A stretch of 64,000 nt of DNA. Source: Brachypodium distachyon. Taxonomy: Eukaryota; Streptophyta; Magnoliopsida; Poales; Poaceae. The position numbers and the translations under genes were made by a program. The stretch spans positions 2,418,001 to 2,482,000 of the forward strand of contig NC_016131.3 in NCBI RefSeq assembly GCF_000005505.3, written 5' to 3'. How positions within the stretch are numbered: position 1 is the first letter of the stretch; every line of letters begins with the position of its first letter. The notes under the pieces are model-generated. The model searched no databases and was not told the origin of the DNA. It saw nothing but the letters and a program-made list of their open reading frames with translations. This document shows positions 20,968 to 57,571 of the stretch, one piece after another.

Positions 20968-23415
20968 CTGGCAGCTAATCATACTTTACTTATGCTTATC
21001 CCTAAAGTCACAGGTGCCTCTTCTCTTTCGCAATTCCGTCCTATTAACTTATGTAATGTTATTTTGAAGATTGTTTTAAAGGTACAAGCAAATAGACTGA
21101 AAGAAATTTTGTCGGAGATTATCTCGGAACAACAATCGGCTTTTGTACCCGGGAGGCTGATCAAAAAGGAGGGCCAGATCTTCCCAGGTGTGTGCTCTAA
21201 TGCTGGATATGATGAAGGCATACGATCGCGTTGAGTGGACCTATCTCCGTGCTATTATGTCACAACTTGGCTTCAGCGAGCGTTGGATGTTTTCTATCAT
21301 GAAAGTGGTGTCGGTTACTTTTTCAGTCCTTTTTAATGGAAAACGCACTGAAGATTTTCATCCAAGCAGGGGGGGATCCGCCAGGGTGATCCCATCTCGC
21401 CGTATTTGTTTTTGCTTGCAGCTAAAGGTCTGTCTTGCCTGTTGAGGAGCAGGGGGAATTCTGAATTTTTGCAGGGCATCATTGTTGCGCCTATAGCACC
21501 CCCGGTCAATCATCTCTTATTTGCAGATGACAGTTTGCTTTTTGCAAAAGCTTGTGTGGAGGGAGCGGCTGCTCTTTCGGAAGTTGTTCATGTGTATTGT
21601 GAGGCTTCTGGTCAAAGGGTGAATCGGCAGAAGAGCTCGATCTTTTTCAGCAAAGGATGCCCTAATGATGTGCACCAAGCAATGAAAGAAATATACAAGT
21701 TCCAAATGAATCTCTTAGTGCCAAATACTTAGGTATGCCCACTGATGTTGGGGGATCGAAGAATGGGGCTTTCAAATATTTGAAAGATAGGGTCTGGGGC
21801 AAGGTGAAGGGTTGGATCGAAGAAACACTATCTGCCGGTGGGAAAGAAGTTCTAATTAAACCAGTCGCGCAAGCTGTGCCGACTTACTCAATGTCCTGCT
21901 ATAAGTTGCCACGAGGTTTATGCCAGAAGACAAACTCTATGATTAGAGGGTTTTGGTGGGGAAGCAAAAATGGAAAAAGGAAGACCCATTGGGTGTCCAG
22001 GGATACTATTTCTATGTCGAAGTACATGGGGGGGTATGGAGTTATTCAATCTCTCCTTGCTAGCTCGTCAGGCGTGGAGACTGTTGATCTGTCCTAGTAC
22101 TCTAAGTGGTCGTGTTTTACGTGATTTTTACTTCCCTACGAGCTCCTTGATGAAAGCTGAGCTGGGACGGTGCCTGTCGCAAATCTGGCGTTCCATCTTG
22201 GAAGGACGAGATGCGCTAAAATTGGGGCTGATTCGCCGGATCGGAGATGGAAGATCAACATCTGTTTGGGAGGACAATTGGATACCATCCGATGAGCGTA
22301 GGCTACCTTATGGTCAGATCTCCGATGATCCTTCGGTCAGGGTTGTTGAGTTGATTGATCAGACCGCCGGCTGCTGGAACATGGACATGCTTAGGGCTCA
22401 TTTTCTCCCTCTGGATGCTGACGTGATTTGCACTATACCGATTAGCACGGCTAACCATGGTGATTTTTGCGCATGGCACTTTGAGAAAACTGGAGTTTTT
22501 AGCGTCCGATCTTGTTATAAGCTACTGATTACGACCAAGAAAGTTCGAGAGGATTGGATTGAAAAGAGACCGGCGTCGAGCTCCAACTCAATGAGCAAGG
22601 CCTGGACCAAACTGTGGAACGTTAAAGTTCCGTCAAAGGTGAGAGTTTTCGCCTGGCGTCTTGCGCAACAGTCGCTGTCCACTAGAGATATTCACAGACA
22701 TATGTCAGACTCAGCGAGGTGTAAAATTTGTTGTTCAACCTCGGATTCTTGGTGTCACTCTTTGATCGAATGTACTATGGCACGTTGTGTTTGGGCCTTA
22801 GTAGATGAGCAGCTAGCAAAGCATGTCGGTGCTTCTATTTGCCCTGATGCCAAGGAGTGGCTTTTCCATCTAATGGAGACTATGTCCATTGTTGAATTTG
22901 TGGAGATCCTGTTGACACTTTGGGCAATCTGGTCAGCACGGAGGAAGGTTATCCATGAAGGTATTTTTCAGAGTCCAGTGACAGTCCATGGCTTAGTTGC
23001 TAGACTTATGTCTGAGCTCCAGGTGGCGCAGGTTGCATCGCAGGTGCATCCGCGCCCTGTTGCTAGAGCTGCGCCTCGATGGATTTCGCCACCGGCAGGG
23101 TATATGAAGCTCAGCGTTGGTGGTGGCATGTCAAAGAACCAAAACAAAGGAGCCTTGGCAGTTGTTTGCCGCGATGAGTATGGGGTGTATCAGGGCTCTT
23201 CCGCCCGTGTCTTTGACTCCTTGGTTGATCCTCCTACTTTGGAAGCCATGGCCTGCTGCGAGGCACTTGCGTTGGCCAAAGACCTACAATTGCAGAAGCT
23301 CTATATTGCATCCGATGCTGCCAATGTCATTAAGGACTTCTGGAAGGGACTCGTTTTTCTTATAGTGCTATTCTTCGTGAAGTTGCTGTTCGAAGCCGGG
23401 AATTTTAGGATGTGA
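20968..23415 (+). pseudogene. LINE ORF2, reverse transcriptase to RNase H
   Basis: The reverse transcriptase is readable as [14 protein letters not shown] and AFVPGRLI. A deletion and frame shift follow at about 21160, then [10 protein letters not shown] (first catalytic Asp). An extra G in a G-run near 21370 shifts the frame, then GDPISPYLF and LLFADDSLLFAK (catalytic FADD, about 21515-21550) follow. After 21720 the frame changes again to the KYLG, SMSCYKLP and GFWWGS motifs. The long ORF 21970-23415 has the zf-RVT region (WNVKVPSKVRVFAWRL, then C-x2-C-x11-H cysteine/histidine pattern) and an RVT_3-type RNase H (MKLSVGGG...). The C-terminus shifts near 23340. The protein is dead. Confidence 0.85.
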
Positions 23416-37015: not shown

Positions 37016-40000
37016 CTACTGAGGCTTTGGACTGCGAACAACAGGCTCCTTCTGAATGTCTCCCAAGCTTGGCTTTGGACTGCGGCCACCAGGCTCCTTC
37101 TGAATGTCTCCTGAGTTTGGCTTTGGAGTGAGGCCACTGGGCTCCTTCCGAACGTCTCCCGAGTTTGGCTTTGGACCTTGACCATCGGGCTCCTTCCGAA
37201 TGTCTCCCAGGTTTGGCTTTGCACTGCGACCACTGGGCTCCAACTTGATGCCTCCCAAGTTGTTGCGGCGATGTTTGCAAGCACCTGCGCCAGGGTCGTT
37301 TTTGGCTGCACCCTTGGGCTCTTGATGCTTCTCTGTTGCTGGTTTTCTGTCTGCCTCACTGGAGCCTTGAATCCCTTCTAGGATAGAGACTACGGCGTCC
37401 ATGGATGGCCTCATCTTAGCATCGTACGACAGACACTCGACAGCAAGGGCAGCAATTGTCTGCGCACCTCTGTGGGAGTATTGACCTTCTAGCTTGGTAT
37501 CCAGGACACGGAATACCTTGCGGCTATGTGTGAGATATGGCCGGGCCCATTCAACAAGATTGTGCTGCCCCTGGGGCCGGTTCTTGTCAATGGCCCGACG
37601 ACCTGAGAGCATCTCCAGGAGCACTACCCCGAAGCTATAGATGTCACTCTTTGCAGTAAGATGGCCTGAAAATGTTTTATCACATGCTGAATGTAAGCTC
37701 TTGGTGGATGCCATAAAAAAGTAGTGTATGTTTTTTTGCCAATAAGACAGTACCATAGCAAAGTAAACTAAGAGAATTTAAAATGTGAGATGGCCTGAAA
37801 TGTTGACCTGTTTATCACATGCCAAACATGAGCTTTTGGTCAATTTTATAAAGAAGTTAGTGTACATTCTTTGCCAAGAAGGAAGCTTGGTAACATTTTT
37901 GCAGATAACTAAACTAAGAGGAATTCAAAATATAACAGCCAGTGTCATGGACCAACTTATGGTTAAACACAATTAAAATGAACACTAACCATTTCTCTAA
38001 ATGTTATTTGTTCACACGGTTGAACATAGGCCACAAAGAAAACTTTTGCATAAATCTTTCATTTCATGGAATGGCCTTGTAGTGTTAGATAATTAAAATA
38101 AGATCCTGACATAGAATTGATTTCTAATGCATGTAAAGAAACTTCAACAGAGATAAAGCTGTGCCAAAAATGAGATCTGTAAAGCAAGGGATGAACAATT
38201 GTGTTTTTACAAATTAAATTTTTTTAGTGCAATTATAGCTTAGACTAATTTCCATTAATGAATGCATTAGCATTCAATGGTTCCTGTCAGACAAACCAAT
38301 GTGCAGAAAATTGGCTCGACAACACCCAAAACTGCAATTCAAAGGTTACCTGTTGACAGGTATTCTGGAGCAGCATAACCATATGTTCCCATTACCCTTG
38401 TGGATACATGACTCTTCTCACCAACAGGACCGTCTTTCGCCAATCCAAAATCAGAAAGCTTTGCAGTATAGTCCTGCGCGGTAACATGTGCATTCCGTTC
38501 AGTAGAGATCACACAATCATAGACGTTACACACAGTGTATTGATAATTCACTTTCACTTACAGTGTCAAGGAGAACATTGGATGTTTTAAAATCCCTATA
38601 AATAACTTTGGCCTCTGCACTGTGAAGGTAGGCAAGTCCTTTTGCAGCTCCAAGTGCAACCTTCATTCTTAGATTCCATGGAAGAGGCTGAATGTGCGAG
38701 CCTCCTAGATTGAGCATTGATATAGCAAGTTAACTATTACATACTACACTCAAAAGTGATATTGTATGCAAAACAAATAAATATTCCCAGGGTAGAGCAC
38801 CAAGTCCTGGTTTAACTTACTCCTGAAAAGATGATTCTCCAAACTCCCACGTGGCATGTACTCATACACTAGCAGCCGGTTCTCATCCTCTAAACAGTAC
38901 CCAATCAGCTTGACAAGGTTGGGATGGCAAAACTGACCTAGGAAATTAACTTCCGCCTACAGATGGAAACTTGATGAAGTCAGAAAAACATCCAAGTATT
39001 TGATTAACACTTCTGAAACTGTAACTAATGAATTCATAGACATCACATAAAGGTGGGATCTTCAAAATTAGACTTTAAATAAAATGAATCAAACATGATT
39101 TCCAGGACAACGACATAAAATAGAACATCACTTATACTCACCAACCACTCTCGGTGCCCTTGCAAACCCTCCTGGTTAAGTCTTTTCACAGCAACAGGTA
39201 TTCCAGAGCCAGGTTTGCAAGCTGACAATGTATTCTCATCGATCCATCCTTTATAGACAGGCCCAAACCCTCCTTCACCGAGCACATTGGTAGGACGAAA
39301 GCTCCTTGTGGCTAACCTGAGATCATTATAGCTGAAGATCTTAACATTGGCTGACTGCAAGATCTCCCATTCAGTCTTCGCACTTGGAGGCATGGAAGAC
39401 GATGAAGCCCGACTGCTGCATGCACTAAGCCTACTCCCATCTTTACCAGTACCCCTTGAGAAAAATCCTGCAAATCAGGTCATTAATAAATTTTCTACTG
39501 GATGAAACATAGATAAAAAAAATACCAAATCAAAGATTACGTTTGAAATCAAAGATCATGTATTGCAAGTTTCGAATGCTTGTTATTTAAGGAAACATTG
39601 CACAGCAATTAGGGACTGGATGAAGCAAGCAATAATCACTTCGCCATTATCTGAAATTCGAGATATATTTGCATCGAACACTGTGTGGCGATATGAATAA
39701 TGAAGTGTAAGATGCATTTTGCATCAAAAAAGTGGTAAGATGTATTTTGCGTCAAGAAGTGGTAAGATGCACGCATTAACAGTAACCTTGCCCCACCCAA
39801 TGTACACCCGATGCCATGGCACACAACATAACCCAAAGCTTATCATATTTATATACTACCAAGTTTAGAAATATCACAGCTTCAACTTAGTATGCTGTGA
39901 CCATGCAAAGAACATGGCAGTCAAGCCAAACAAATTGCAGACATGGTTATTTACTTGAACTTGATAGTACCCATCATCACCAACAAAAAGAAAGTTTCTA

Positions 40001-43212: not shown

Positions 43213-46200
43213 ATGGCCGGCGCCGCCTGGACGCTCTCCTCCGCCGCGGACCTCCTTCCCGCCTCCCTCTCGCTGAGCCTCCTCCTCGCCTCCCTCGTAC
43301 TGCCCTCCCTCCCCACAAAACCCTCCCTCATCCATCCGCACTCCCTCCTTCCTCCTCGCGCTACTCACGCCATCTCTTCTCCTTCCCTGCGCAGGTCGCC
43401 ATCCTCGTGCTGGGCGTCGCCGCCGTCTTATTCGACCACCTCCGCAAGATCGGATGCATGCACTCGTAAGGCGCTATTCCGCACTTCCCCTATTATCCTT
43501 CTGCCCTTTTCTCTTGCGATCTGCCCGTGCACGTCGTTGACTGGTCCGCCGTTCCGGATCTCGGTCGCAGGCTGGAGCGGACCTCCGTCTCGGACGCCTT
43601 CTTCGAGGACCCCAGCTCGCTCAACAAGGTGCTGATTGCTTGTCTGGGCTGTGACACGGTGTGCACGCTAGGTGTTTGTTCATTTGCTTGTGTTACCTGT
43701 GGTAGGTGCCCTGCCCGTCGATTTTCGACCCTGCCGAGAAGTACATTTCGTTGATCGTTCCGGCTTACAACGAGGAGTGCCGGCTTCCGGAGGCTCTCAC
43801 AGAAACATTCAAGTAAGGCTCTCACTGCACAGAGCAGTCTATACAAGTAGTTGTCTCTGTCTAATTGTAGCTCTGTCAGGTGAATGTTTGATTTGCTAAG
43901 TTAATCACTCTGCTGTTTTCTTCTCCATTAGCTACCTGAAACAACGTTCAACTGCTGACAAGTCGTTTTCTTATGAGGTACGCAGGAATTGAACAAGCTC
44001 ATGTTCTTTATTAGATATGCAACATTTTGGAATAAGGCATTAAGCTACTTTTGCAAACAAAACAACTAGGTAAAAATGGGAGATTATGCATTTTAGTATC
44101 AGTAGTCATCAGATATGTTATGCAAGCTGGTTAAACACTTTGTGCATTATGCCATGACTCCACAGTAACACTTTCACCGGTGCAGCCACCAACAGATGCC
44201 TGTCATGTAAATATGTTTTTATTTTGGATTGCACACGCATATCACACATGATTGCCCCCTCCTAAGTTCCGTATACTTGTACTTTTCCCGCATTGAGTTA
44301 GAAATTTGTCTGTAATGGAGCTTTAACCCAATCTTTTATTTTAGTGAAGATGAATATGATGCAGAATTTGAATTGCTATAGCCTTTTCTGATTATATTCA
44401 TTTAGTCACGAAACTCTGTTCTGAAAGAAGAAAAACAGTTATCAAACCAGACTGAAGGCCTGGATCAAGGAATATAAATTCAGATTTGCATTGCTGTTAT
44501 TTGTTTAGAAAGGCTCTTAATAAGAGGACAGGTTACATACTTTCCTGGAGCTAGTTCTTATCCAGTTTCTGAGTTATAATAGCTTGTTCTATATTTATTG
44601 TTGCAAATTATGTTAGCATACATGCACCACTTGCCTTGGTAGCTAAATCATTGGAAAATCCATGTTAATAATGTAATTTACACATGACGCCTCGAAAAAA
44701 TGTAATGACCTGTAGGTGCCAAAAGCTGTTGTTGGAATAACTAGAACTGTTGCAACTGCCATCCATTGGCAGCAGTTTTGGAAGTACAGAAAGTAATTGG
44801 GTCAATTGACCCTGCTGAATTCAGTAGATGTGTCGATGTAACCTTAACAGAATGTGACCTGCCTTTGCAATGGCGCACAATCTCTGAGGCACACGTGCTT
44901 CTTCCAAATCTTGTTTCTATAACCTTATTAGTATTTGCATTGCTTTTTTACCTATCCTGGTAGTTAGCATTTTATAGGAAGACCTTTTATCTACAATCCT
45001 GTACTAATTTAGCTAATTTTGAATGTTTAATTTGTCATTTGCTTGATTTTATTAAGGTCTTGATTGTTGACGATGGAAGTACTGATTGTACCTCCAAAGT
45101 TGCCTTTGGGTATGTAAAGAAGCACAAGATTGACAATGTTAGAGTTCTTCTGCTTGGAAGAAATCACGGGAAAGGTGAAGCAGTCAGAAAAGTGAGTGTT
45201 GATGTACCTTCAACACAAACTTGTTGTAACAAATCAACTCTAATTGATGCTTTGCAATTGTTTGTGGAAGCATTTTCTAGGGGATGCTCCATTCACGGGG
45301 TGAACTATTACTCATGCTTGACGCTGATGGTGCCACTAAGATCACTGATTTGGAAAAGCTTGAAGCCCAGGTCTGTCATAAGCTCAATCAAATAACTTGT
45401 TGTTGGGCTGGTTTTGACTAGGATGAGCATAACATCCCAAGATTTGTGTTATTGCTGTTAGGTTCGTGCATTGGCCAAGAAAGCGGATTCCAGTTTAGCA
45501 CCCTCTGCTACTTCATCTCAGAGACTATCTGATGTTGAAATTGCTGTTTTTGGTTCCCGTGCTCATCTGGAGAAGGAGGCTCTTGCCACGGTATATATCT
45601 CCTAACGCCTCACTTCCCTTAGTTGCTTGCTTTTGTTTCATAATCTCTTAGATTCCCCCCTATTCCTGTCTTACTGCAGAGGAAATGGTATCGAAACTTC
45701 CTTATGAAAGGTTTTCACTTGGTAGTATTGTTGACTGCTGGTCCTGGAATCAGAGATACACAGGTATGCTTTTGCGAGCAGAAGATGTGCCCATTAGTCG
45801 TATGCGCATCGGTCTTTTTGAGGCATGCTATCTATCTTTTTCATTTCCTTCACTATTATAAATCCAGTGTGGCTTCAAGATGTTCACCCGATCTGCTGCA
45901 AGGAAACTCTTTACAAATATCAGATTGAAGAGGTATTTTCTTAAAAGGAAACCCGGTGATGTTTCTACATACAATATGTATCTTTCAATATAACGTCTAT
46001 ATTCAAATCATCCTGCAAGGCTTGAACCTGAAGGACCTGAGTGATTTTTTTTCTTCTACTTTTGCACGGCCAGGTGGTGTTTTGATGTTGAGATTGTATA
46101 CCTATGCAAGCACCTCAGGATCCCGATGGCGGAAGTGTCTGTTAGTTGGACTGAAATTCCTGGATCCAAAGTGCGCATGACAAGCATCCTGCACATGGTA

Positions 46201-46804: not shown

Positions 46805-48640
46805 ATGCCGCCCCGCGCCCCGCCTCCGCGCCGCCGCCCATACACCACCACAGCGCCCGCCTCGAACCCCACGGCGTCGCCGTCGCGCGCTGCCGAGCAG
46901 CATTGCCTCCGCCTCCTGGAGCGCTCCTCGACGCCCGCGTCGCTCCTCCAGTCCTTCGCCTTCCTCCTCAAGTCCGGCCTCCACTCCAACCCGCTCGTCG
47001 TCACCAGGCTCTTCGCCGCCTCCGCCTCCGCCGCCCCGGCGCTCCTTGAGCCACTAGTCTCCTCCCTCCTCGGCCCCTCCCTCCCGCTGGACGCCTTCCT
47101 CGTCAACACCCTCATCCGCACCCACGTCACCTCCCCGTTCCCCTCCGCGCGCCGCCGCGCCGCGGCCTTCTTCCCGCTCATGCTCCGCGCCGCCGTCGCC
47201 CCCAACAAGTTTACCTTCCCCTTTCTCCTCAAGTCTTGCGCCGCGCTCCCGGGGTCCCCCGACGTCGGCCTCCAGGCCCACGCCGCCGCACTCAAGTTCG
47301 GCTTCGCGGCAGATCACTACGTATCCAATACACTGATACACATGTACTCCTGCTTTGGCGCGGGGTTCCTCGGGGACGCGCGGAATGTGTTCGAGAGAAT
47401 GCCTAGGGAGAGCGCAGTTACCTGGAGCGCCATGATCGGCGGGTATGTGCGTGCGGGTCTGTCGAGTGATGCAGTCGTGTTGTTCAGGGGGATGCAGGTC
47501 AGCGGAGTGCGGCCAGATGAGGTGACGGTGATCGGAGTTCTGGCGGCCGCCGCTGATTTGGGCGCGCTCGAGCTCACACGGTGGGTTGGGCGTTTTGTGG
47601 AGAGGGAGGGGATAGGGAAGTCTGTTACACTTTGCAATGCGCTGATTGACACGCTCGCCAAGTGCGGGGATGTAGATGGAGCAGTGGCGGTGTTTGAGGG
47701 GATGGAGGAGAGGACTGTTGTGTCATGGACGTCGGTGATTGATGCTCTTGCCATGGAGGGTCGTGGGAAGGAGGCTGTTGGGGTGTTCGAGGAAATGAAG
47801 GCTGTAGGTGTGCTGCCTGATGACGTTGCATTCATCGGGGTGCTCACTGCATGTAGCCATGCTGGAATGGTTGATGAAGGTCGTGGCTATTTTGATTCAA
47901 TGAAGACAGAGTACGGCATTGAGCCTAAGATCGAGCATTACGGTTGTATGGTTGACATGTTTGGTCGTGCTGGCATGGTTGAGCAGGGGTTGGAGTTTGT
48001 TCGTGCAATGCCCATGAAACCAAACCCAATAATTTGGCGGACACTAGTAGCTGCTTGTCGTGCTCATGGTCGGCTTGAGCTGGGCGAAAGCATCACCCGG
48101 AACCTTCTTAATGAGTTCCCTGCTCATGAGGCCAACTACGTTATGCTCTCTAATGTATATGCATTGACACAGAGATGGAAGGAGAAGTCAGAGATTAGGA
48201 GGGAGATGAGCAAGAGAGGAATCAAGAAGGTGCCAGGCTGCAGCCTTGTTGAGCTTGATGGAGAGGTCCATGAGTTCATAGCAGGAGACGAGTCACATCC
48301 ACAGTACAAGGAGATATACAGGATGGTCGAGGAGATGTCAAGAGAGCTAAGGCGCATTGGGCACATTGCTGCTACATCAGAGGTACTCCTTGATCTTGAT
48401 GAGGAGGACAAGGAGGGTGCGCTTCAGTGGCACAGTGAGAAGCTAGCAATTGCATTTGTGCTACTGAGGACTCCTCCTGGAACACAGGTCCGGGTGGTAA
48501 AAAACCTCCGTGTATGCTCAGATTGTCATGCGGCAATAAAGTGCATTTCACAGGTTTATAATCGGGAGATCGTAGTGCGTGATCGGAGCCGTTTCCATCG
48601 CTTCAAGGATGGTTCATGCTCGTGCAAGGATTTCTGGTGA
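46805..48640 (+). CDS. PLS-DYW pentatricopeptide repeat protein, 611 aa
   Basis: Single intronless ORF, usual for this family. The first residues are Arg/Pro/Ala-rich and could be an organelle transit peptide. PPR motifs of the P, L and S kinds run from about residue 100 to 440 (for example NTLIRTHV, SNTLIHMYSCFG, WSAMIGGYVRAG, NALIDTLAKCG and WTSVIDALAMEG). E and E+ motifs follow (NPIIWRTLVAACRAHG; KKVPGCSLVEL), then the DYW domain. The DYW domain has the deaminase-like HSE (WHSEKLAIAF) and the CSDCH zinc-binding site. The last residues are CSCKDFW, so the closing triplet is DFW and not DYW. DYW proteins choose and deaminate cytidines in chloroplast or mitochondrial RNA. The ATG at 46805 is the first in frame; the target site cannot be read from sequence. 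Confidence 0.93.
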   Translation: MPPRAPPPRRRPYTTTAPASNPTASPSRAAEQHCLRLLERSSTPASLLQSFAFLLKSGLHSNPLVVTRLFAASASAAPALLEPLVSSLLGPSLPLDAFLVNTLIRTHVTSPFPSARRRAAAFFPLMLRAAVAPNKFTFPFLLKSCAALPGSPDVGLQAHAAALKFGFAADHYVSNTLIHMYSCFGAGFLGDARNVFERMPRESAVTWSAMIGGYVRAGLSSDAVVLFRGMQVSGVRPDEVTVIGVLAAAADLGALELTRWVGRFVEREGIGKSVTLCNALIDTLAKCGDVDGAVAVFEGMEERTVVSWTSVIDALAMEGRGKEAVGVFEEMKAVGVLPDDVAFIGVLTACSHAGMVDEGRGYFDSMKTEYGIEPKIEHYGCMVDMFGRAGMVEQGLEFVRAMPMKPNPIIWRTLVAACRAHGRLELGESITRNLLNEFPAHEANYVMLSNVYALTQRWKEKSEIRREMSKRGIKKVPGCSLVELDGEVHEFIAGDESHPQYKEIYRMVEEMSRELRRIGHIAATSEVLLDLDEEDKEGALQWHSEKLAIAFVLLRTPPGTQVRVVKNLRVCSDCHAAIKCISQVYNREIVVRDRSRFHRFKDGSCSCKDFW

Positions 48641-49429
48641 CATTGTGTTTAGTAAAGAGTGGATTGAAGTTCCACAGCAGATGTAGGTTATCATGATGTG
48701 CTTTCGAGAAGCTTCTGCAAGTCCTCAAGGTTTGCCAATCTATTTGTAACACAATGATTTCAGTGGCTCAAAACTGTGATGCTTATTCAAGATTATTGGA
48801 AGCAGCATTGAAGCATATACTTTCCAGGTACTTCACATGTGTACTAGATGTCTTATTGCTTGTCGGTAAACATTTTTTGGACCAACAGTTTGTCAAAATA
48901 CCTCATAGGCTGTTGTGGGAGCACATCGTATGCATACCCCAGTTTACATTCCCTCAATTCAAATCATGAAATTAATCAAAAACATCTCAACATAATATTT
49001 CATTATTTTTATGCTACACATAGAAAAAATCCATGACATGTATGAATCAATATACGATGGTTCAACAACTCAATAAGATTATTTCGCGTCAACAGACTAA
49101 AAATAAATGGTTCATGCTATCTAATGGGCAATCTTGACCGAGAATTTGAGATTTACATGGCAAGCTCAAGCATATTGGCGATTTACATTGTATCACTGGC
49201 CAATCTCTCAAGGCCATACACTATATTCCTCATAATTATATGCTTGTGGTCTATTTGCCAGCATAGGTGCTGATGGTGTCAAGAATGTTAATGCATATTC
49301 AAATCATAGCACAGCTCTAAGCCTTTTCTCGAGCATCTGCTTCTCCATTGCTTCATTTATGCAGTGAGTTTATACCTGTTATCGTGATCTCCTCCTTCAT
49401 TCTTCCAGTTGGTACCTGTTCGTCATTTG
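48641..49429. other. PPR 3' region and spacer
   Basis: No gene is recognised. The DNA is AT-rich with only short ORFs. Confidence 0.4.
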
Positions 49430-49600
49430 GCGTCTTGGCGATACAACATGTGAGTAGAGACCTCCGGCCGTAGCAGCATGATGAACTTCATGATATCTGA
49501 AGACGGATTCTCTAACCTCCAGTAAGATGTTCAGCTTTTCATGTTCTTGTTGCCCGAGAAGAGCTCAACTGATCCACCCTGTTCTTTCTCCATCGTGGAT
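49430..49600 (-). pseudogene. Relic of the Rx-N-like family (middle segment)
   Basis: On the minus strand the reading ELFSGNKNM, then SSDIMKFIMLL in frame-shifted DNA, matches the LFSS-x-x-D-I-E-x-L ... SPDIGEFIRLL segment of the intact member at 54750-55958. Neither end of the gene is present. Confidence 0.55.
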
Positions 49601-49731
49601 GAAAGCTAATGTTCTAAAGAAAAGGAACTAACACATAGTGAGGGGTTGATCACAATGTGTCTAGATTTCACATATTGTTACCGAGATGAGCTGTCTTTAC
49701 ATGATAATAAGAAGTTAGCATCACGGAAATA

Positions 49732-50768
49732 GGTATACCAGTTTGCTTTAGTATTCCACGTCCCTAGCTAAGCCCTCGCTACGCACAAAACTTCTGAGTT
49801 CATCTATCTCTTGATCAGATTCCATCATTGACTCAATTTTGTCTTTGGTGCTTTGAGTTCTGCGTGACTGATAGCACTGAGGGCAGCACAGCCTTGTTGC
49901 TTCGTCTCCCCGAGGATGTCAGCCCAGTATGCTATACACCATGTCCTCTAAGTCGCAGCTGTCTGCCAGCTCGACGGTCTTGCAGATTGTTTCAGTTTGA
50001 GTCTGTCCAAGAGCGTTTCCTGTTGTTCCTTCTGGATAACGACTGTTTCATTGACTGAAATGTCCATCCATTTGTTCACCGCTGCCTCCATGCACGGAGC
50101 TCAAAAGTTTATCTCTTCCTCCTTATGTACTTTGAGGCCAAATGATCTAAACCCTGACTGTGTCGTCTTCCTCATTTTTTTACTTGGTTGATGCTCTGTA
50201 GTGGTGCCCTCATACTCTTGGTAGGTGTTAGATCTACCCTTGCCCAGGCCTCAAGCTGAAACAATCTTATGAACTCTCGGATATCCCTCGAGACCTGCTC
50301 TAACCTGTCCACTGTGCTGTTCAGCTTTTCCATGTCCTCGTCACTTGAAAATAACATCTGTGTTCGTCGCGAACGCCCTGCACCATACCCAACAGAGATT
50401 TGCTTGTGAAAGACAGTACCTGTAGTTGTTGCAGAAGTAGCACTAGAAGAAGAGGATGAGCTTTGCTGCCGCTTGGCTTTGGCGCTCCTAATGGCTTCTG
50501 CGTCCTCCACCTGTCGTGTGAAGTTTCCAAGCAATTTGTCTCCTTGTGAGTTAGCTTCATTTAGCTTGTGCGCCATCGAAGCAGCCACAGATTCTTGATG
50601 CTACGCCTCTTGGATGCTTTAACTGTGCTGTGGATCTTGATTAGCAGCATCTCCAGCCGCTGCAGCTTCTCGCCAGCAGCTGCCTGCTTACCGAACCTCT
50701 GTATTAGCCCGGAGAACACTCTGTTTGGTGAGCTCGCCGGTCACGGAGTTAACTCTCTGTTCTGCCAT
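49732..50768 (-). pseudogene. Rx-N-like two-module gene, pseudogene
   Basis: ATG on the minus strand at 50766-50768 starts MAEQRVNSVTGELT. One extra base in ACCAAACAGAG (ACCAGCAGAG in the intact copy) shifts the frame. The shifted reading then gives RLEMLLIKIHSTVKASKRR. A second shift at about 50588 restores the frame used by 50172-50588 (TRQVEDAEAIRS, SVGYGAGRSRRTQMLFSSDEDMEKLNS). Stops follow at about 50172. After that the C-terminal module is still readable in broken form (49735-50040: YWADILGETKQQGCAAL, LARDVEY). It has the full two-module plan of 54750-55958 but cannot make a full protein. Confidence 0.7.
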
Positions 50769-52147
50769 GGCCACGGAAATGGGGGAAAATGAGAAAGGTG
50801 TTAGCAACAAGAATGCTAACTCGTGCTCATGGCTTATACCACCCTTATAGCGACCTGTACTGTAGAAGTAACAGATGTTTTGGTGGCGGATAGTTTGTCA
50901 GTTTAGAGGTCTGCAAGGCCAAAAAAAAAAACAGTTCGGAGAGGAAGGCCTGTATGATTTGTACTATCCTCTTCCGTTTGTTGTTGCAGAATGATGTTTA
51001 CTACAAACACAAATTCTGAGTTATAAACTCGAGTATCATAGCATACCAAGAGTTGGAGAGTCTGTTAATCTGAAATAAAAAGAAAAAACACAAACTGCTT
51101 TTGCTTATAAAAGGTGATAAACCACAAGCACTAAACTGAATACAAATGCACAACACCAGTATAGGTCGGCACGATCTGAGTTCAGGCACCATGTTAATAT
51201 GATATTCTCTAGATCCAAAACCCTAACCTTTGCCAAGGCAGCATGGCACACAAATATTAGACAAACCCTTTGATCCAGCTGAAGACTTGCGAGAAGCTAT
51301 CGGCAGATGGCAGGGGTTCTTAGGATGCTGTTTGCCTAAAACCCCAACAATCTGACGGTAGCTTCTCGTGCGTCGACAGCTGCACTGCTCTTGATAAGCG
51401 ATGACTGCAGAACTAAAGAACATGTGATATGGCTCAAGAAATGGCATGTAATTTTTTCAAGAAAAATAAGCATCTGTCAGCTCAAAGGAAGATATGTTGT
51501 GTTGGAGTTGTAGCTTGCAATCTCCTCTGTGGCTATTTGTGTGGTGATCTGACAAGAAAAGGTAAGCTGATGAATTTCAAGCGAAAACGACAAGTAAAAC
51601 GAATATGGAGAAAATACATCAAGAGACATTGTTAAGGAAAATTCAAGAGATAGCTTAGAGAGAAAGTACAAGTGTACAACTTAGTTGCCGTCACCATTGT
51701 TTTAATCGCTCTGGATGTTAAAAGAAGTTGAAAACAGACAAATGATGTATGGTTGGTATCTGCATTAGAGTTGAAAGGCATCACATTCTCAATAATAAAA
51801 TGGATCTTTAGGTATGTCCTTTTTGAGGCCTCCACAGCTTTGGATATTTTAACTTCAGCAACTGTCATTTGAGGGAGGGAATATCTGGTCAAGCACGCAA
51901 CAGAAGTTACATATACAGAAAATTTGTTATAAAGCGTGTGAAAATTCAAAAATGGCCAGGGAATGCATACTGTGTATCCAAATAGAATTTTCAAGACCAA
52001 AATCAATCAAACTTGTGACAGGAAAAGAGAAGTTCCTTCAGTACCGGATGTATAAATTGTAACGGTTTTAATCAGAAAACATGACTAAAGTTACACAATC
52101 CAGAACAAAAGAAAAAATCACAGGTGCTGCCCTTTTCACGCTCCCTA
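50769..52147. other. No gene recognised
   Basis: Spacer between two family members. Short ORFs on both strands lack domains. An A-run lies at about 50921-50931. Confidence 0.4.
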
Positions 52148-52969
52148 TCATTTGGTGGAGTCAAGTGCCATCTTCCTGTTTGAACGTTGCTGTGCTTCCT
52201 TTTGCAACAATGGATGGTCACTTATAATCACTGGTTTCTTCCCTTTTCTAGGTCCATGCTCCTCCCCCATCAAAATCTCAAGCTCAACCAATCTCGAGGA
52301 CTTATCATTATCTGCTGATAGCTTCTCCAACATCTCTGGTTTCGTCCCTTTTGCTGGTGCATGGTCCTTCCCTGTCAAACCCTCAAGCTCAACCAATCTC
52401 GAGAACTCATCATTATCTGCCGATAGCTTCTCCAACAACTCTGGTTTCTTCCCTTTTGAAGGTGCACGCTCCTTACCCATCAAAACTTCAAGCTCAACCA
52501 ATCTTACGAACTCCTCATTATCTGCCGATAACTTCTCCAACATCTCCACCGTGCTGTTTAACTTCTGTACTTCCTCATTGTTTGAGAGCAGCGGCATCTT
52601 GGAAGCATTGCGGAAGTAATTTTCAATACTGGACCCAGCAATCTTTGTGTAAGTCTGACCACGGCGTGTGCCTATCTTATTATTGATGCTCTTGCTGGCT
52701 TCATTCAAGGCTCGCCATCGAAAGCCGAAGAGTACCTCATCACCCTCTGTGCCAGCTTCCCTCAGCTTCTCCTGCCACTTGAGCAGATAGGTGCCAGTGA
52801 TTCTGTGCTTCTTGGATGCCTCAACTGTGCTGTTTATCTTTATGCACAGCATCTCCAGCTTGCGCAGCTTCTCGTTGACAGCTGCCTGCATGTTTACTAT
52901 TCCTAGTACCTTGGAGACGACCCTGCTTGTGATTTCGCTGACCACTGCAGAACCAACTTGTCCTGCCAT
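52148..52969 (-). CDS. Rx-N-like coiled-coil protein with three 35-aa repeats, 273 aa
   Basis: The first ATG is at 52967-52969 (MAGQVGSAVVSEITSR). The helical hairpin LRKLEMLCIKINSTVEASKK ... LLKWQEKLREAGTEGDEVLFGF (about residues 35-85) resembles the N-terminal CC (Rx-N) region of grass NLR immune receptors; the A-G-x-E-G-D-E-V-L part sits where the EDVID-like motif lies. NEEVQKLNSTVEMLEKLS follows and also matches the segment before the NB-ARC domain in such receptors. No NB-ARC (P-loop) or LRR exists. The C-terminal half is three tandem 35-residue copies of LEKLSADN ... LVELE ... KGKKPE, a duplication of the last piece. Function is unknown; regulation of, or decoy function for, NLRs is only a guess. 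Confidence 0.65.
   Translation of the reverse strand: MAGQVGSAVVSEITSRVVSKVLGIVNMQAAVNEKLRKLEMLCIKINSTVEASKKHRITGTYLLKWQEKLREAGTEGDEVLFGFRWRALNEASKSINNKIGTRRGQTYTKIAGSSIENYFRNASKMPLLSNNEEVQKLNSTVEMLEKLSADNEEFVRLVELEVLMGKERAPSKGKKPELLEKLSADNDEFSRLVELEGLTGKDHAPAKGTKPEMLEKLSADNDKSSRLVELEILMGEEHGPRKGKKPVIISDHPLLQKEAQQRSNRKMALDSTK
52249..52563 (-). repeat. Three 105-bp coding tandem repeats
   Basis: Units are offset by exactly 105 bases (the CTTCTCCAACA word recurs at 52322, 52427 and 52532), so 35 codons each and the frame is preserved. Confidence 0.9.
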
Positions 52970-53314
52970 GCTCAAGGAACTTGTATGGATAGCCAGAACA
53001 GACTAAAGTATAACGAGGAATTATACTGGATAGTGGATCTATGGCAGCAATTAAGGATACACCTGTTGGTCTGAAACAAAAGGACTGCAGCTGTTTAATC
53101 ATCTCCTAGAGATTTTATTTAAGGTAACCCAATTGTAACAGGAACAAGACAGCCAAAATTAGATGGAGAAAAAGAGGTCATTTGTGGCATAGTTTGTGTC
53201 ACCCACTTACCCCCCTAGATACTTTCACCGAGACTGAAAAGTGATTGGGAGTAGGGCCTTGTTGTACATAGTTCGTATCTGCTAAGGGGCCTGGATAAAA
53301 TGAGATTGATAACT
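52970..53314. other. Upstream region of the minus-strand gene
   Basis: Probable 5' UTR and promoter of the 273-aa gene. No core motif could be fixed. Confidence 0.35.
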
Positions 53315-53546
53315 TCATATCTGTAGATAGTTTAGCTGCACCAGTTTGTCTTGTCTCGTTATTCTCCTCTCTTTGTTTAGAGTAGTACTTTTGGTTTGTA
53401 GGATGCTGTGGATGTTGACGAGATGAATCTCCAGGTTCTGTGGCTTCTTCCTTCATCAGGATTCAGGGTGTTTTGAGACCGGAGAGCACCCTGGTAGTCA
53501 CCATGATATCATACTAGATAATGGCTGGATCATTTTGTTCTGCCAT
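53315..53546 (-). pseudogene. Rx-N-like family relic (N-terminal module)
   Basis: ATG at 53544-53546 starts MAEQNDPA, with stops soon after. Further on, TTRVLSGL and, in another frame, KPQNLEIHLVNIHSILQTK and TRQDKLVQ match the first module of the family. It ends at a stop near 53315. Confidence 0.6.
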
Positions 53547-53984
53547 TGGCAATCTCTCTCAGATTTTACTTCTCAAGAAATTTGTTATCATTTCAGCATA
53601 TTATATTTTTAACAGTTTTCACTAAATAGACTGTTGTCATCTGGTCGACTAGTTGCATTGAGCAGGACCAAAACACGTACAGCCTATACTAGCCGATCCG
53701 ATACAAGAGTTTTAGCATGACAAAGTGGTCCAATGACATTTGGTCTTTTGCACTCCTTAATCCTTATAATGTCTTACTAGAAGTTTTGAGTATTTGAAAT
53801 TCTCGTATACTTCCATTTAAGCTGTCCCATGTCTGTTCGGCTTCTTGCTGTGAACAGCATGCCTACTCTAGTGGCGATAAATGAATAGATGGTACAATTA
53901 CAAAATCCCTATAGTTGGATTGATTTATCTTTCTTACCCTTGACAATATACACTCTGTTTTTCAAAAGGTAGAAGTGGTAATTC
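53547..53984. other. No gene recognised
   Basis: AT-rich spacer inside the cluster with no open frame of interest. Confidence 0.4.
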
Positions 53985-54395
53985 GTCACCATGGGAGGCA
54001 GCCTAGACCTTCTCCCGCCACTGGACCAGTGCGGTGCTCTTGATGGTGTGCTTCTCTGACACCTCGATCATGCTGCAGAGGCTGGAACTGATCCATGGAC
54101 CAGTGCGGTGCTCTTAATGTTCAGCTTTTCCATGTTTTTGGTATCTGAGAAAAGCGTCGTTGTGGCGTATGGTGTTGCACATTCTCCATGCCACACCTGA
54201 CAGAGAGCATTCCCTGTGGAAGACAGATTGAGAGGACGCACCCAGTGCGGTTACTCCTGCTACTACTAGCTTGCTGCCGATTTCCCTCTGTTTTTATTTC
54301 CGCTGCCTCTCCTCTGGCTCTCTGTTGGAAGATGAGTAGCACCTCCTCACCTCCAAGGTGGTTTCCTTTAGCCTATCGCGTCCTTGGAGCCACAA
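53985..54395 (-). pseudogene. Rx-N-like family relics, two overlapping fragments
   Basis: On the minus strand, 53985-54090 reads MIEVSEKHTIKSTALVQWREKV, the family hairpin. From 54395 to 54115 it reads EEVLLIFQQRARGEAAEIKTEG and further middle-region pieces. The order is not that of one gene, so at least two relics or a rearranged one are present. A GGACCAGTGCGGTGCTCTT repeat occurs twice (54022 and 54096). Confidence 0.55.
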
Positions 54396-54749
54396 ACATA
54401 GTTTCTATCGCCTTACAGCCCTGCGTTATCTGTATTGGCTAATGTCTGCATAAGAAATAAAACGGTAGCAGCTATTGATAGGCTGTCCAACCTGCCAAAA
54501 TGTACGCAGACAATTTCTGTTGTTTGTACTTTGTACACTTCAGGACTACAGCTGTCCTTATGAGGGTGATATGAACTATAAGCATAGCTGTTGCTGATGC
54601 CTTCTCTCATTTTTCATTCATGTCCTTGTATAAGTCACCTGAATTCTTCCACAGAGGATGAACCCTGGCAGCAAGTCGGACGGCAACATGTTTGACCTCC
54701 AAAGGTGAGAAGCTCTAGTGTTTCGAGCTATCACTTACTCCTTGGAGCC

Positions 54750-55958
54750 ATGGCAGAAAGGACAATTAACTGTGTCACCTCGGCCGTGACTGGCGAGCTC
54801 ACCAGCAGAGTGTTCTCCGGGCTGATCCAGAGGTATGGTAAGCATGCAGCCACCACCGAGAAGTTGCAGCAACTGAAGATGCTGCTCATAAAGATCCACA
54901 GTGCTGTCGAGGCGTCCGAGAAGCGTGCCATCGAGAACTCATGGCTGTTGCTATGGCGTGACAAGCTGAAGGAAGCCGCCAAACATGGTGACATGGTGCT
55001 TGCCAGCTTCCCACAGCAGGTCCAGGATGCTCAAGCCACTAGCAGCACCGATGGCAACCAGAAGCAAGGTGAAACAGCATCTTCTTCTGCTGCTCCCGTT
55101 ACAGCTGTAGGCGCGCTGTCTTTCACGAGGAATTCTCTGTCTGCTATGGTGCAGGGCGTTCGCAGCGCAAGAGAAATGTTTTTCTCAAGCGGCAACAATG
55201 ATATTGAAAGGCTGGACAAGATATTGAGAGTCTTAGAGAAGCTTTCACCAGACATCGGAGAGTTCATAAGATTGCTTCACCTTGAGGCCTTACCAAAGTG
55301 TACTACAGTGTTATCAACTCAAGTGCATGTACCAACAAAGAAGAGGACAATGAGAGAGAAGAAAAGGAAGAGACACTCTTCATCTGGGGAGGAACTGATG
55401 GAAGGATTATCAGCTTATTGCATGCCGTCGGAGGAGGAATCTGAACATTTTGAATCAAAATGTGATCCAGCACATCTCCAAGAGGAACAAAAGGAAGTGC
55501 TTTTGCAAGATAGACTCTTCGGCGTACCACGGGAGGGGGTAAAGTGGAGAGAAGTGCGCCATAGATTGTACTTCCAAGAAATAACAGCTCTTCCCAATTT
55601 AGCATGTGACTCAGCAAATCTTCAGAAGGAACAACAGTTAATGGTCCTGCAGGATAGGCTGCAGGCAGCATTCACTGAGATCTGCAGGGCCGTCCAGCTG
55701 GCCAACAGCCACGACTTAAAAGACCTGGAGTGGCTAGCGCATTGGGCTGGCATCCTCAGGGAGGCAAAGCAACAAGGCTGCAATATCCTCGGCACCATCA
55801 ACTCATGCAAAACTGACAACAAGGAAGATAACAAGGAGTCGATGGTGGAATGTGATCAAGACAAAGATGAACTCGGCACTTTCGTGCATAGACTGGAGAG
55901 CTTAGCTAGGGATGTAGAGTACTTCAGAAAATTGGTATACCTGTGTCCTGCGTGCTAG
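54750..55958 (+). CDS. Two-module Rx-N-like protein without NB-ARC, 402 aa
   Basis: Start at the ATG of GAGCCATGG (54750), aligned with the start of the paralog at 56478; an in-frame ATG at 54705 is less likely. Residues 39-87 (LQQLKMLLIKIHSAVEASEK ... WRDKLKEAAKHGDMVLASF) form the helical hairpin seen at the N-terminus of grass CC-NLRs. SFTRNSLSAMVQGVR and DIERLDKILRVLEKLSPDIGEFIRLLHLE follow, as in the linker before an NB-ARC domain. There is no P-loop, kinase-2 or LRR. A basic stretch (KKRTMREKKRKR, about 206-217) could be a nuclear signal. Residues 304-350 repeat the hairpin pattern (LQAAFTEICRAVQL ... WAGILREAKQQGCNILGTI), then LESLARDVEYFRKLVYL. The family resemblance is from sequence pattern, not a search; function is unknown. 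Confidence 0.75.
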   Translation: MAERTINCVTSAVTGELTSRVFSGLIQRYGKHAATTEKLQQLKMLLIKIHSAVEASEKRAIENSWLLLWRDKLKEAAKHGDMVLASFPQQVQDAQATSSTDGNQKQGETASSSAAPVTAVGALSFTRNSLSAMVQGVRSAREMFFSSGNNDIERLDKILRVLEKLSPDIGEFIRLLHLEALPKCTTVLSTQVHVPTKKRTMREKKRKRHSSSGEELMEGLSAYCMPSEEESEHFESKCDPAHLQEEQKEVLLQDRLFGVPREGVKWREVRHRLYFQEITALPNLACDSANLQKEQQLMVLQDRLQAAFTEICRAVQLANSHDLKDLEWLAHWAGILREAKQQGCNILGTINSCKTDNKEDNKESMVECDQDKDELGTFVHRLESLARDVEYFRKLVYLCPAC

Positions 55959-56174
55959 CTTCTTATTCTTCTTGTTTCTTGACAACTTGAGATATTGTTA
56001 GTTTAATGATCGGACAACCTGTATTAGGTGCCTTGTGGAGACCACGGAGGCCAACTTGAGATTTTGTGTGACGCAACTGGTGCATGAAACTTAATAAGTT
56101 GTCTTCTTCTTTCTTTTGATAGTCGCACTCATTTATTTATCCTCCTTTCCGGTTCTCTCATTTTTGTTTCCTTG
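55959..56174. other. 3' flank of the 402-aa gene
   Basis: Likely 3' UTR and spacer; no signal clearly visible. Confidence 0.4.
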
Positions 56175-56212
56175 CTTCTGAGGCGGTTTCATTTAGCTTG
56201 TCGCGTCAGTGG
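56175..56212 (-). pseudogene. Short antisense family relic in the upstream region
   Basis: The minus strand reads RDKLNETAS here, the WRDKL segment of the family. A matching antisense piece lies at 54360-54395, at the same place upstream of the other plus-strand copy. Confidence 0.5.
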
Positions 56213-56477
56213 AGACACAGGCATAGTTTCTATCCCCATATTGCCCTGCATTGTCTGAACCAGCTAATCCCTGCATAGGAAATGAAGCGGTAGCAACATA
56301 GGCTGTCCTTATGAAGCTGACACAAACTATGAGCATGAACATTGTAATTGCTGACGCCTCCTTTCATCTTTTCCCATTCCTGCCCCCATTTAAGTCACAT
56401 CAATTCTTCCATGGAGGATCTCAAACAGTGAGAATATCTAGTGCTTGAAGCAAAGCAACCACTAACTCTTCGGTACC

Positions 56478-57571
56478 ATGGCAAAGCAGGCAGTTAACTC
56501 TATGACCTCGGCCATGGCTGGGGAGGTCATCAGCAGGGTGTTCTCCAGGCTGATACAGAGGTATGGTAAGCATGCAACCACTGCCGATAAGTTGCAGCAG
56601 TTGGAGATGCTGCTAATAAAGATCCACAGTGCCATCGAGGCGTCTGAGAAGCACATCATTGAGAACTCGTGGCTGTTGCAGTGGCGTGACAAACTGGCGG
56701 ACGCCGCCAAACAGGGAGACGAGGAGCTTGCCAGCTTCCAACAGCGGTTCAAGGATGTCCAAGAGACTAGCAACACCGATGGCAACGCGCTGCAAGATGA
56801 AGCAGCCTCTGCTGCTGCTCCTCCCATTACTGCTGTAAGTGCACTGTCTTTCACGAGGAATTCTGTTTCCAGTATGATGCAGGGCATTCGCAGCGCTAGA
56901 GAAATGCTGTTCTCCAGCGACGACGATGATATTGAAAGGCTGAACAAGGTAGTTGGAAGGTTGGAGAAGCTCTCGCCAGATATTGGGGAATCATAAGATT
57001 GCTTCACTTCCAGGCCTTGCCAAAGGTATGGCAAAGACCTGGCACTACAGCTTTTCCGACTAAAGTTCATGGACCAACAAAGAAGATCAGTAAAATGAGA
57101 GAGAAGACAGCAAGGCGCTCTATCTCGGGTGGGTATTGCTTTCCTGACGAACTACCGACGGAGGAAAAGATAGTAAAAGAAACGTCAGCTCAGTGCCTCG
57201 AGGAGGAGGAATCTGAACATTTCAACTCAAAATGTGATCCAGCACATCTCCAAGAGGGACAACAAGGAGCGCCCCTGCAGGATAGACTCAAGGCAGCATT
57301 CGCTGAGATCTGCAAGGCTGTCGAGCTGGCTGACAGTCGTGACATAGAAGGCCTGGAGTGGCTAGCGTATTGGGCTGGCATCCTGCGGGAGGCGAAGGAA
57401 CAAGGCAGTACCGTCCTCGGCGCCATCAGCGCATGCATGGATGACAAGGAGTTGATGGTGGGATGTGATCCAGAAAAAGATGAACTCAGCGGTTTCGTGC
57501 ATGGACTGGAGAGCTTAGCTAGGGATGTGGGAGACTTCAGCAAATTGGTGTATCTGTTTCCGGCGTGCTAG
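56478..57571 (+). pseudogene. Two-module Rx-N-like paralog with one frameshift
   Basis: ATG at 56478 starts MAKQAVNSMTSAMAGE. The first module and the linker are intact to SPDIGES, where a TAA at 56994-56996 ends the frame. The paralog at 54750 has GAGTTCATAAGATTGC where this copy has GGAATCATAAGATTGC, so one base is missing at about 56990. After the shift the frame 56999-57571 continues the family protein to the common end KLVYL-x-PAC. This reads as a recent one-base lesion or a sequence error. If the base is present the gene would be intact. Compared with the 402-aa copy it lacks an inserted 48-residue stretch. Confidence 0.75.

What the first reader, a model, noticed from the sequence alone, without database searches (positions are those of the whole stretch)
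49430..57571. Tandem cluster of NLR-N-terminus-like genes without NB-ARC
At least two intact ORFs, one copy with a single-base lesion, one two-module pseudogene and several relics lie within 8 kb in both orientations. The proteins have the helical hairpin pattern of the N-terminal CC domain of grass NLRs, but end before any P-loop. The copies differ in architecture: two modules, one module plus 35-residue repeats, or fragments. Repeated birth and death in one spot is typical for immunity loci. A free-standing CC-type family could act by pairing with NLRs, but this is inference.
Basis: partly seen in the sequence, partly recalled or inferred. Interest (0 to 1): 0.75.

Follow-up and report, generated by a model that had tools for sequence, protein, structure and literature searches.

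The report
Grass immune-receptor-tip genes without receptor
A small gene cluster in the grass Brachypodium codes for the front end (coiled-coil part) of plant immune receptors without the rest of the receptor; the same kind of free-standing protein, often built as two such bundles in a row, is found in many grasses, and I found no described function for it.

Summary
The window is inferred to be Brachypodium distachyon. Between 49.36 and 57.57 kb lie one intact 402-aa gene (54750-55958 +), a frameshifted sister (56478-57571 +), a 273-aa gene with three 35-aa repeats (52148-52969 -), a two-module pseudogene (49697-50771 -) and about four relics. The 402-aa protein passes Pfam's Rx_N cut-off; the 273-aa protein and the sister match below it. 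Models resemble receptor coiled-coil bundles. No NB-ARC was found in the window. New here: the 402-aa type is an internal duplication, two bundles in one chain; two subfamilies, A (53 of 67 with a second bundle) and B (16 of 18 without), occur in many grasses and share a contig in four other species, but not in every species seen. None of 85 homologues shows NB-ARC, though the search's length band excludes most full NLRs. The nearest receptor CCs are one grass CNL group rather than 20 other CNLs sampled. No paper seen describes the family. A trans-acting, perhaps nuclear, partner or brake of CNLs is my best guess; not shown.

The parts
54750..55958 (+). Intact A-type gene, 402 aa: N bundle (residues 1-182), basic linker, C bundle (286-402)
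54750..55295 (+). N module (Rx_N match at residues 17-99; predicted helices 2-57, 64-98, 129-146, 150-180)
55296..55604 (+). Linker with basic (NLS-like) cluster; 55430-55517 and 55574-55661 are 60% identical (possible partial internal duplication)
55605..55955 (+). C module, internal duplicate of the N module without its N-terminal helix (predicted helices 288-319, 327-356, 369-397)
55069..55154 (+). 86-nt GT..AG stretch absent from contig protein P0001 (100% identical in the shared frame): possible optional intron whose removal breaks the frame
56478..57571 (+). Sister A-type copy with a frame break near 56990; public protein P0005 (BRADI_1g03681v3) fits this DNA only with a 38-nt 'intron' (56960-56997)
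52148..52969 (-). B-type gene, 273 aa, one bundle plus repeats (BRADI_1g03672v3); C-terminal tail of some relatives is out of frame past its stop (by eye)
52227..52546 (-). Three 105-nt (35-aa) tandem repeats, each a copy of the fourth-helix segment
49697..50771 (-). Two-module A-type pseudogene; of nine queries its best protein match is barley P0010 (63% over 123 residues)
49359..49554 (-). Relic of the linker/fourth-helix part
   Evidence: E 1.7e-6
53404..53448 (-). Possible small relic of the first helix
   Evidence: E 0.001, weak
53983..54068 (-). Small relic of the second helix
54118..54226 (-). Small relic of the third/fourth helix region
   Evidence: E 2e-4
54344..54470 (+). 5' flank shared with 56169-56295 (77% identical): the tandem duplication included upstream DNA

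Best explanation
Identity (shown by sequence, supported by fold; about 0.9): a protein family, seen only in grasses among hits that name an organism, of free-standing CNL-type coiled-coil (Rx_N) bundles without NB-ARC or LRR. It comes in an A type, usually two bundles joined by a basic linker (an internal duplication), and a B type, usually one bundle; both sit together in this Brachypodium locus. Mechanism (inferred, about 0.3): the proteins cannot be ATP switches themselves, so they work in trans. The likeliest way is that the bundle binds the CC domain of unlinked CNLs of the related grass group, or a partner of those CCs, and holds them back or recruits them. The basic linker would bring the A type into the nucleus, and the second bundle would either cap the first or let one molecule bridge two partners.
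Confidence: 0.38

Rival explanations
1. Executor: the free CC bundle itself oligomerises in a membrane through its first helix and triggers cell death when expressed, without a switch domain.
For: The N-terminal helix is kept and lines up with that of related CNLs (by eye, sequences printed); a CC fragment can kill cells alone (NRC4's first 29 residues suffice, PMC6944444 abstract passage).
Against: The MADA consensus is poorly matched: by eye 3 of 13 fixed positions in the 402-aa protein and 4 of 13 in the 273-aa protein (consensus). No NB-ARC to build a ring.
Confidence: 0.12
2. Non-immune nuclear scaffold: an NLR-related helical bundle used in some other grass-specific process.
For: Basic cluster in 30 of 40 linkers; in Brachypodium one locus holds all strong matches (8 of 47), and A/B pairs recur in other grasses, rather than a large family spread over the genome; Urochloa, however, has A types on several contigs.
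Against: Local turnover (one duplicate broken, one pseudogene, about four relics) looks more like an immune-type locus; no positive evidence for another process.
Confidence: 0.25
3. Decoy: the proteins mimic CNL CC domains that pathogen effectors bind, and so soak them up or are guarded.
For: CC-like sequence and fold kept without the rest of the receptor.
Against: No effector or guard is known for it; no NLR in the window.
Confidence: 0.13
4. Debris: leftovers of NLR genes that lost their NB-ARC and are decaying without function.
For: Two of the four larger local copies are broken and a third has lost a tail; dN/dS about 0.5.
Against: The same NB-ARC-free two-bundle plan is found in many grasses; independent debris would not share it. 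One copy has a contig that looks like a spliced transcript.
Confidence: 0.1

Closest known systems
Rx_N (PF18052) coiled-coil domain of CNL immune receptors, e.g. NRC2/3/4, Sr35
   Same: Sequence match above Pfam cut-off for the 402-aa protein; first-ranked folds
   Different: No NB-ARC or LRR; duplicated bundle in the A type
The own-genome CNL-type loci L009-L024, with the full CNL L012
   Same: Closest CC domains found in this genome
   Different: Of 18 ORFs scanned, 14 show NB-ARC in the same ORF, two of them below the cut-off; the window genes show none
RPW8 genes of Arabidopsis (recalled; not fetched)
   Same: Free-standing NLR-type coiled-coil proteins in a tandem cluster
   Different: RPW8 has its own Pfam family; no RPW8 match for five window pieces
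TIR-only proteins and truncated NLRs such as NRG1C (PMC12856790, passages seen)
   Same: Receptor parts that act without the whole receptor
   Different: TIR proteins and an LRR/WHD fragment, not CC bundles; that review's main text held 0 occurrences of 'CC-only', 'CC domain alone' and 'without NB-ARC'
DUF1719 (PF08224), locus L019
   Same: Front part related to this family; no NB-ARC row for that ORF
   Different: Carries DUF1719; five window pieces do not match it

Membership tests
Rx_N domain (PF18052) | Score above Pfam gathering cut-off (27.7 bits) | tested here: met
   Met by 1 of 5 pieces: 402-aa protein 29.7 bits. Below: broken sister 25.6, 273-aa 20.3. No match: 57095-57568, 50175-50576
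Rx_N domain (PF18052) | CC helical bundle fold | tested here: inconclusive
CNL immune receptor | NB-ARC domain | tested here: not met
   HMM of 13 relatives' NB-ARC side, maximum sensitivity, all frames of the window: best E 0.9, positive controls found; no NB-ARC in Pfam scan of five pieces; PF00931 genome search lists none in the window but scored 115 of 579 candidates
CNL immune receptor | LRR domain | tested here: not met
   No LRR family among Pfam rows at E up to 1 for five pieces
CNL immune receptor | EDVID motif (87-96% in the four largest CC-NLR tribes, PMC6944444 passage; absent in CCG10-NLRs, PMC12856790 passage) | tested here: not met
   Aligned positions 81-85 read D-E-V-L-A in most of 43 rows; C module has no acidic pair in most rows. 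Not a strict criterion
MADA-type CNL | N-terminal MADA motif | tested here: inconclusive
   By eye 3 and 4 of 13 fixed positions; no MADA HMM was run
RPW8 family | RPW8 Pfam domain | tested here: not met
   No RPW8 row at E up to 1 for five pieces
DUF1719 family | PF08224 match | tested here: not met
   None for five pieces, while L019 gives E 3e-23
Immunity gene of any kind | Role in resistance or cell death | not testable with these tools
   No expression or phenotype data

The most novel reading that the evidence does not exclude
A grass lineage of NLR-related proteins does without the switch and sensor and has doubled the signalling bundle, giving a free nuclear 'CC-CC' regulator that works in trans on a group of CNLs, with an old linked partner gene of the single-bundle kind.
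Probability: 0.22. Interest if true: 0.75.

Novelty: new variant of a known kind. Interest (0 to 1): 0.5.

Why it matters
TIR-only proteins are known to act without the rest of the receptor; a CC-only counterpart kept across many grasses, with the bundle duplicated, would show that the CC part can live and be selected alone. In Brachypodium all strong matches of the 402-aa protein lie at one locus, so a knock-out in a model grass is practical and would directly test whether CC-only proteins tune CNL signalling. The public gene models here also look doubtful, which matters to anyone using them.

Tried and rejected
Hidden NB-ARC exon: tblastn of 14 own-genome ORFs and an HMM of 13 NB-ARC sides against all frames of the window found nothing significant. 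One spot, 50930-51064 -, shows up in both at E 0.63 and 0.9; it lies upstream of the pseudogene on its strand and was judged chance. Plain NLR debris: not the main reading, because the two-bundle plan is shared across grasses. C module as an unrelated helical region: rejected by profile comparison with 30 shuffles. Sequence match to solved NLR structures: none at E up to 1. Foldseek alone: nothing at E 0.001 or below; for the A-type model many axonemal proteins rank above NRC4 (rank 44). Pfam FANC_SAP on the 273-aa protein (23.5 bits, just above its cut-off of 23) lies on the repeat region and was judged a chance match; not followed further.

Literature: ten searches, of which one search was for MADA/EDVID background. 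No paper seen describes the family, but one search found 27 papers and listed 15, of which I opened PMC13398706 (whole text: PmD479, an ordinary CNL) and, as passages, PMC8380429, PMC10229466, PMC10433925, PMC10703678 and PMC11013425; the two papers were seen as listing only. PMC6944444 and PMC12856790 were seen as passages.

Trees: the first used 19 A, 12 B, 3 window rows and 17 own-genome ORFs; the second 21 rows labelled A (P0064 and P0068, B-like by profile, among them), 10 B, 3 window rows and 14 + 4 own-genome rows. L012 fell inside the family side in the first and outside in the second; the two roots are midpoints for drawing only, so neither tree shows whether NB-ARC was lost or gained. 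That A and B form one clade without L018/L019 is unresolved (support 47/35). The 16 fetched regions cover 21 of the 39 non-window matches, two only in part; 18 ORFs were scanned with Pfam. The 20 regions were chosen from the PF00931 list mainly by long open frames; at least L040 (P-loop at residue 73) lacks most of a CC in that ORF. One search scored only the 7990 candidates sharing most words. In one search, 40 of 43 rows had all three parts.

Full report
What was checked. The window is G000:C1:2418001-2482000 of a 271.3-Mb, 11-contig genome. I infer Brachypodium distachyon, since the 273-aa gene and the broken copy correspond to BRADI_1g03672v3 (P0046) and BRADI_1g03681v3 (P0005).

Sequence class. 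The 402-aa protein (54750-55958 +) matches Rx_N with 29.7 bits, cut-off 27.7; the broken sister has 25.6 and the 273-aa protein 20.3, both below. So one of five translated pieces passes, two approach and two do not match. Nothing in the window resembles NB-ARC: an HMM built from the NB-ARC side of 13 related own-genome ORFs gave a best E of 0.9 in maximum-sensitivity mode and found its positive controls; tblastn of 14 such ORFs aligned with their CC parts, other stretches only at E above 0.1, and L012 gave no row. A genome-wide PF00931 search listed 127 matches, none in the window, but scored only 115 of 579 candidates.

Two bundles. The AlphaFold2 model of the 402-aa protein (mean pLDDT 70.4, pTM 0.61) shows an N bundle (helices 2-57, 64-98, 129-146, 150-180) and a C bundle (288-319, 327-356, 369-397). 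Profiles of the two parts align with probability 90.2, E 1.5e-6 and score 42.3; 30 column-shuffled controls scored at most 17.8. The C bundle is therefore an internal duplicate without the N-terminal helix. The B-type 273-aa protein has one bundle, and the fourth-helix segment occurs three times as 35-aa units; most of the repeat region is of low confidence in the model (mean pLDDT 67.5, pTM 0.50).

Family and distribution. Three protein searches gave 85 different homologues, three of them (P0001, P0005, P0046) products of the window's own genes; every row that names an organism is a grass. By profiles, 67 are A-like, 53 of them with a C module, and 18 are B-like, 2 with a C module. None of the 85 matches the NB-ARC profile, but the search returns only proteins within a length band, which excludes most full NLRs. 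This rests on equal contig lengths and locus tags, not on seeing the DNA; in Digitaria and Urochloa decumbens the A and B rows are on different contigs, and Urochloa has A types on several. The 402-aa gene and its broken sister are a younger duplication (99/91, 99/90) that took upstream DNA along. The pseudogene 49697-50771 is most like barley P0010 (63% over 123 residues in one frame).

Relation to NLRs. In its own genome the 402-aa protein has 47 matches, 8 in this locus and 39 elsewhere. Of 18 ORFs scanned from 16 regions (21 of the 39 places), 17 show Rx_N (9 above the cut-off) and 14 show NB-ARC in the same ORF (12 above the cut-off); one is a DUF1719 ORF. The N-module profile scores 78 bits on L012, a complete CNL, and 33 to 70 on 17 others of these ORFs, but at most 17 bits on 20 other loci taken from the NB-ARC list. 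The first set was picked by similarity to this family, so the contrast is partly built in; the point is that many other CNLs are far away. In the second tree the family with L018 and L019 forms a group at 97/91, next to a CNL group at 100/99; in the first tree L012 also fell on the family's side. Branches are long and the root is not inferred, so loss of NB-ARC from a CNL ancestor is the simplest reading but is not shown.

Clues to function. The linker of A types carries a basic cluster (K-K/R-x-K/R or four basics) in 30 of 40 members, against 16 of 40 in the nearly three times longer N parts and 1 of 40 in the C parts. The place of the EDVID motif reads D-E-V-L-A in the N module and mostly lacks acids in the C module. 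In receptors this motif docks on the LRR (PMC12856790, passage), but by eye most of the related CNL ORFs printed lack it too, so this is no argument either way. MADA is poorly matched by eye. dN/dS between the intact gene and its sister is 0.45 in the N part, 0.50 in the rest and 0.53 in the C module: some constraint, not strong; among the 35-aa repeats it is 0.48, 0.59 and 1.59 on 35 codons each. A contig protein identical to the intact gene over its shared frame lacks exactly an 86-nt GT..AG stretch, which suggests transcription and optional splicing; removal breaks the frame. On this DNA the public models of the two other genes need GT..AG 'introns' of 38 and 42 nt at nearly matching places. 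That is unusually short for plants (recalled) and probably an annotation artefact, or a difference between assemblies (the public contig is 75,071,545 long, C1 here 75,069,854).

Verdict. The view of a purely local birth-and-death cluster is too narrow, and the NLR-pairing idea is untested. No paper seen in ten searches describes the family; the library lacks most subscription papers, and not every listed paper was opened.

Noticed in passing
window 55069-55154 +: P0001, a protein from an unnamed contig of 1115 bases, equals the 402-aa gene over the shared frame but lacks exactly an 86-nt GT..AG stretch: looks like a spliced transcript that shifts the frame.
   Followed up: partly
window 56960-56997 + and 52398-52439 -: On this DNA two public models need introns of only 38 and 42 nt, starting GTTGGAG and GTTGTTGGAG at nearly the same place before the fourth-helix segment: annotation artefacts, assembly differences, or very short optional introns.
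   Followed up: partly
window 46805-48640 +: Intact PPR protein with DYW domain next to the cluster.
   Followed up: no
window 21943-23415 +: ORF with zf-RVT and RVT_3 matches: retroelement remnant.
   Followed up: no
window 37016-37777 -: Fragment with the end of a protein kinase domain.
   Followed up: no
window 44964-45395 +: ORF matching glycosyltransferase family 2, 31.9 bits.
   Followed up: no
window 56163-56231 -: Weak match (E 0.001) to the pseudogene inside the duplicated 5' flank of the A genes: perhaps one more relic; not counted.
   Followed up: no
window 58007 onward, +: By eye: a start codon followed by a leader-like hydrophobic stretch downstream of the cluster, possibly the first exon of a small secreted protein; not tested.
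   Followed up: no
P0038 and P0044 (rice and an unnamed contig): The linker of these relatives contains a stretch that looks by eye like non-LTR reverse transcriptase, as if an element had inserted between the two bundles.
   Followed up: no
L019:1696-2955 +: A DUF1719 ORF whose front part is related to this family and which shows no NB-ARC: DUF1719 may be another CC-related grass family.
   Followed up: partly
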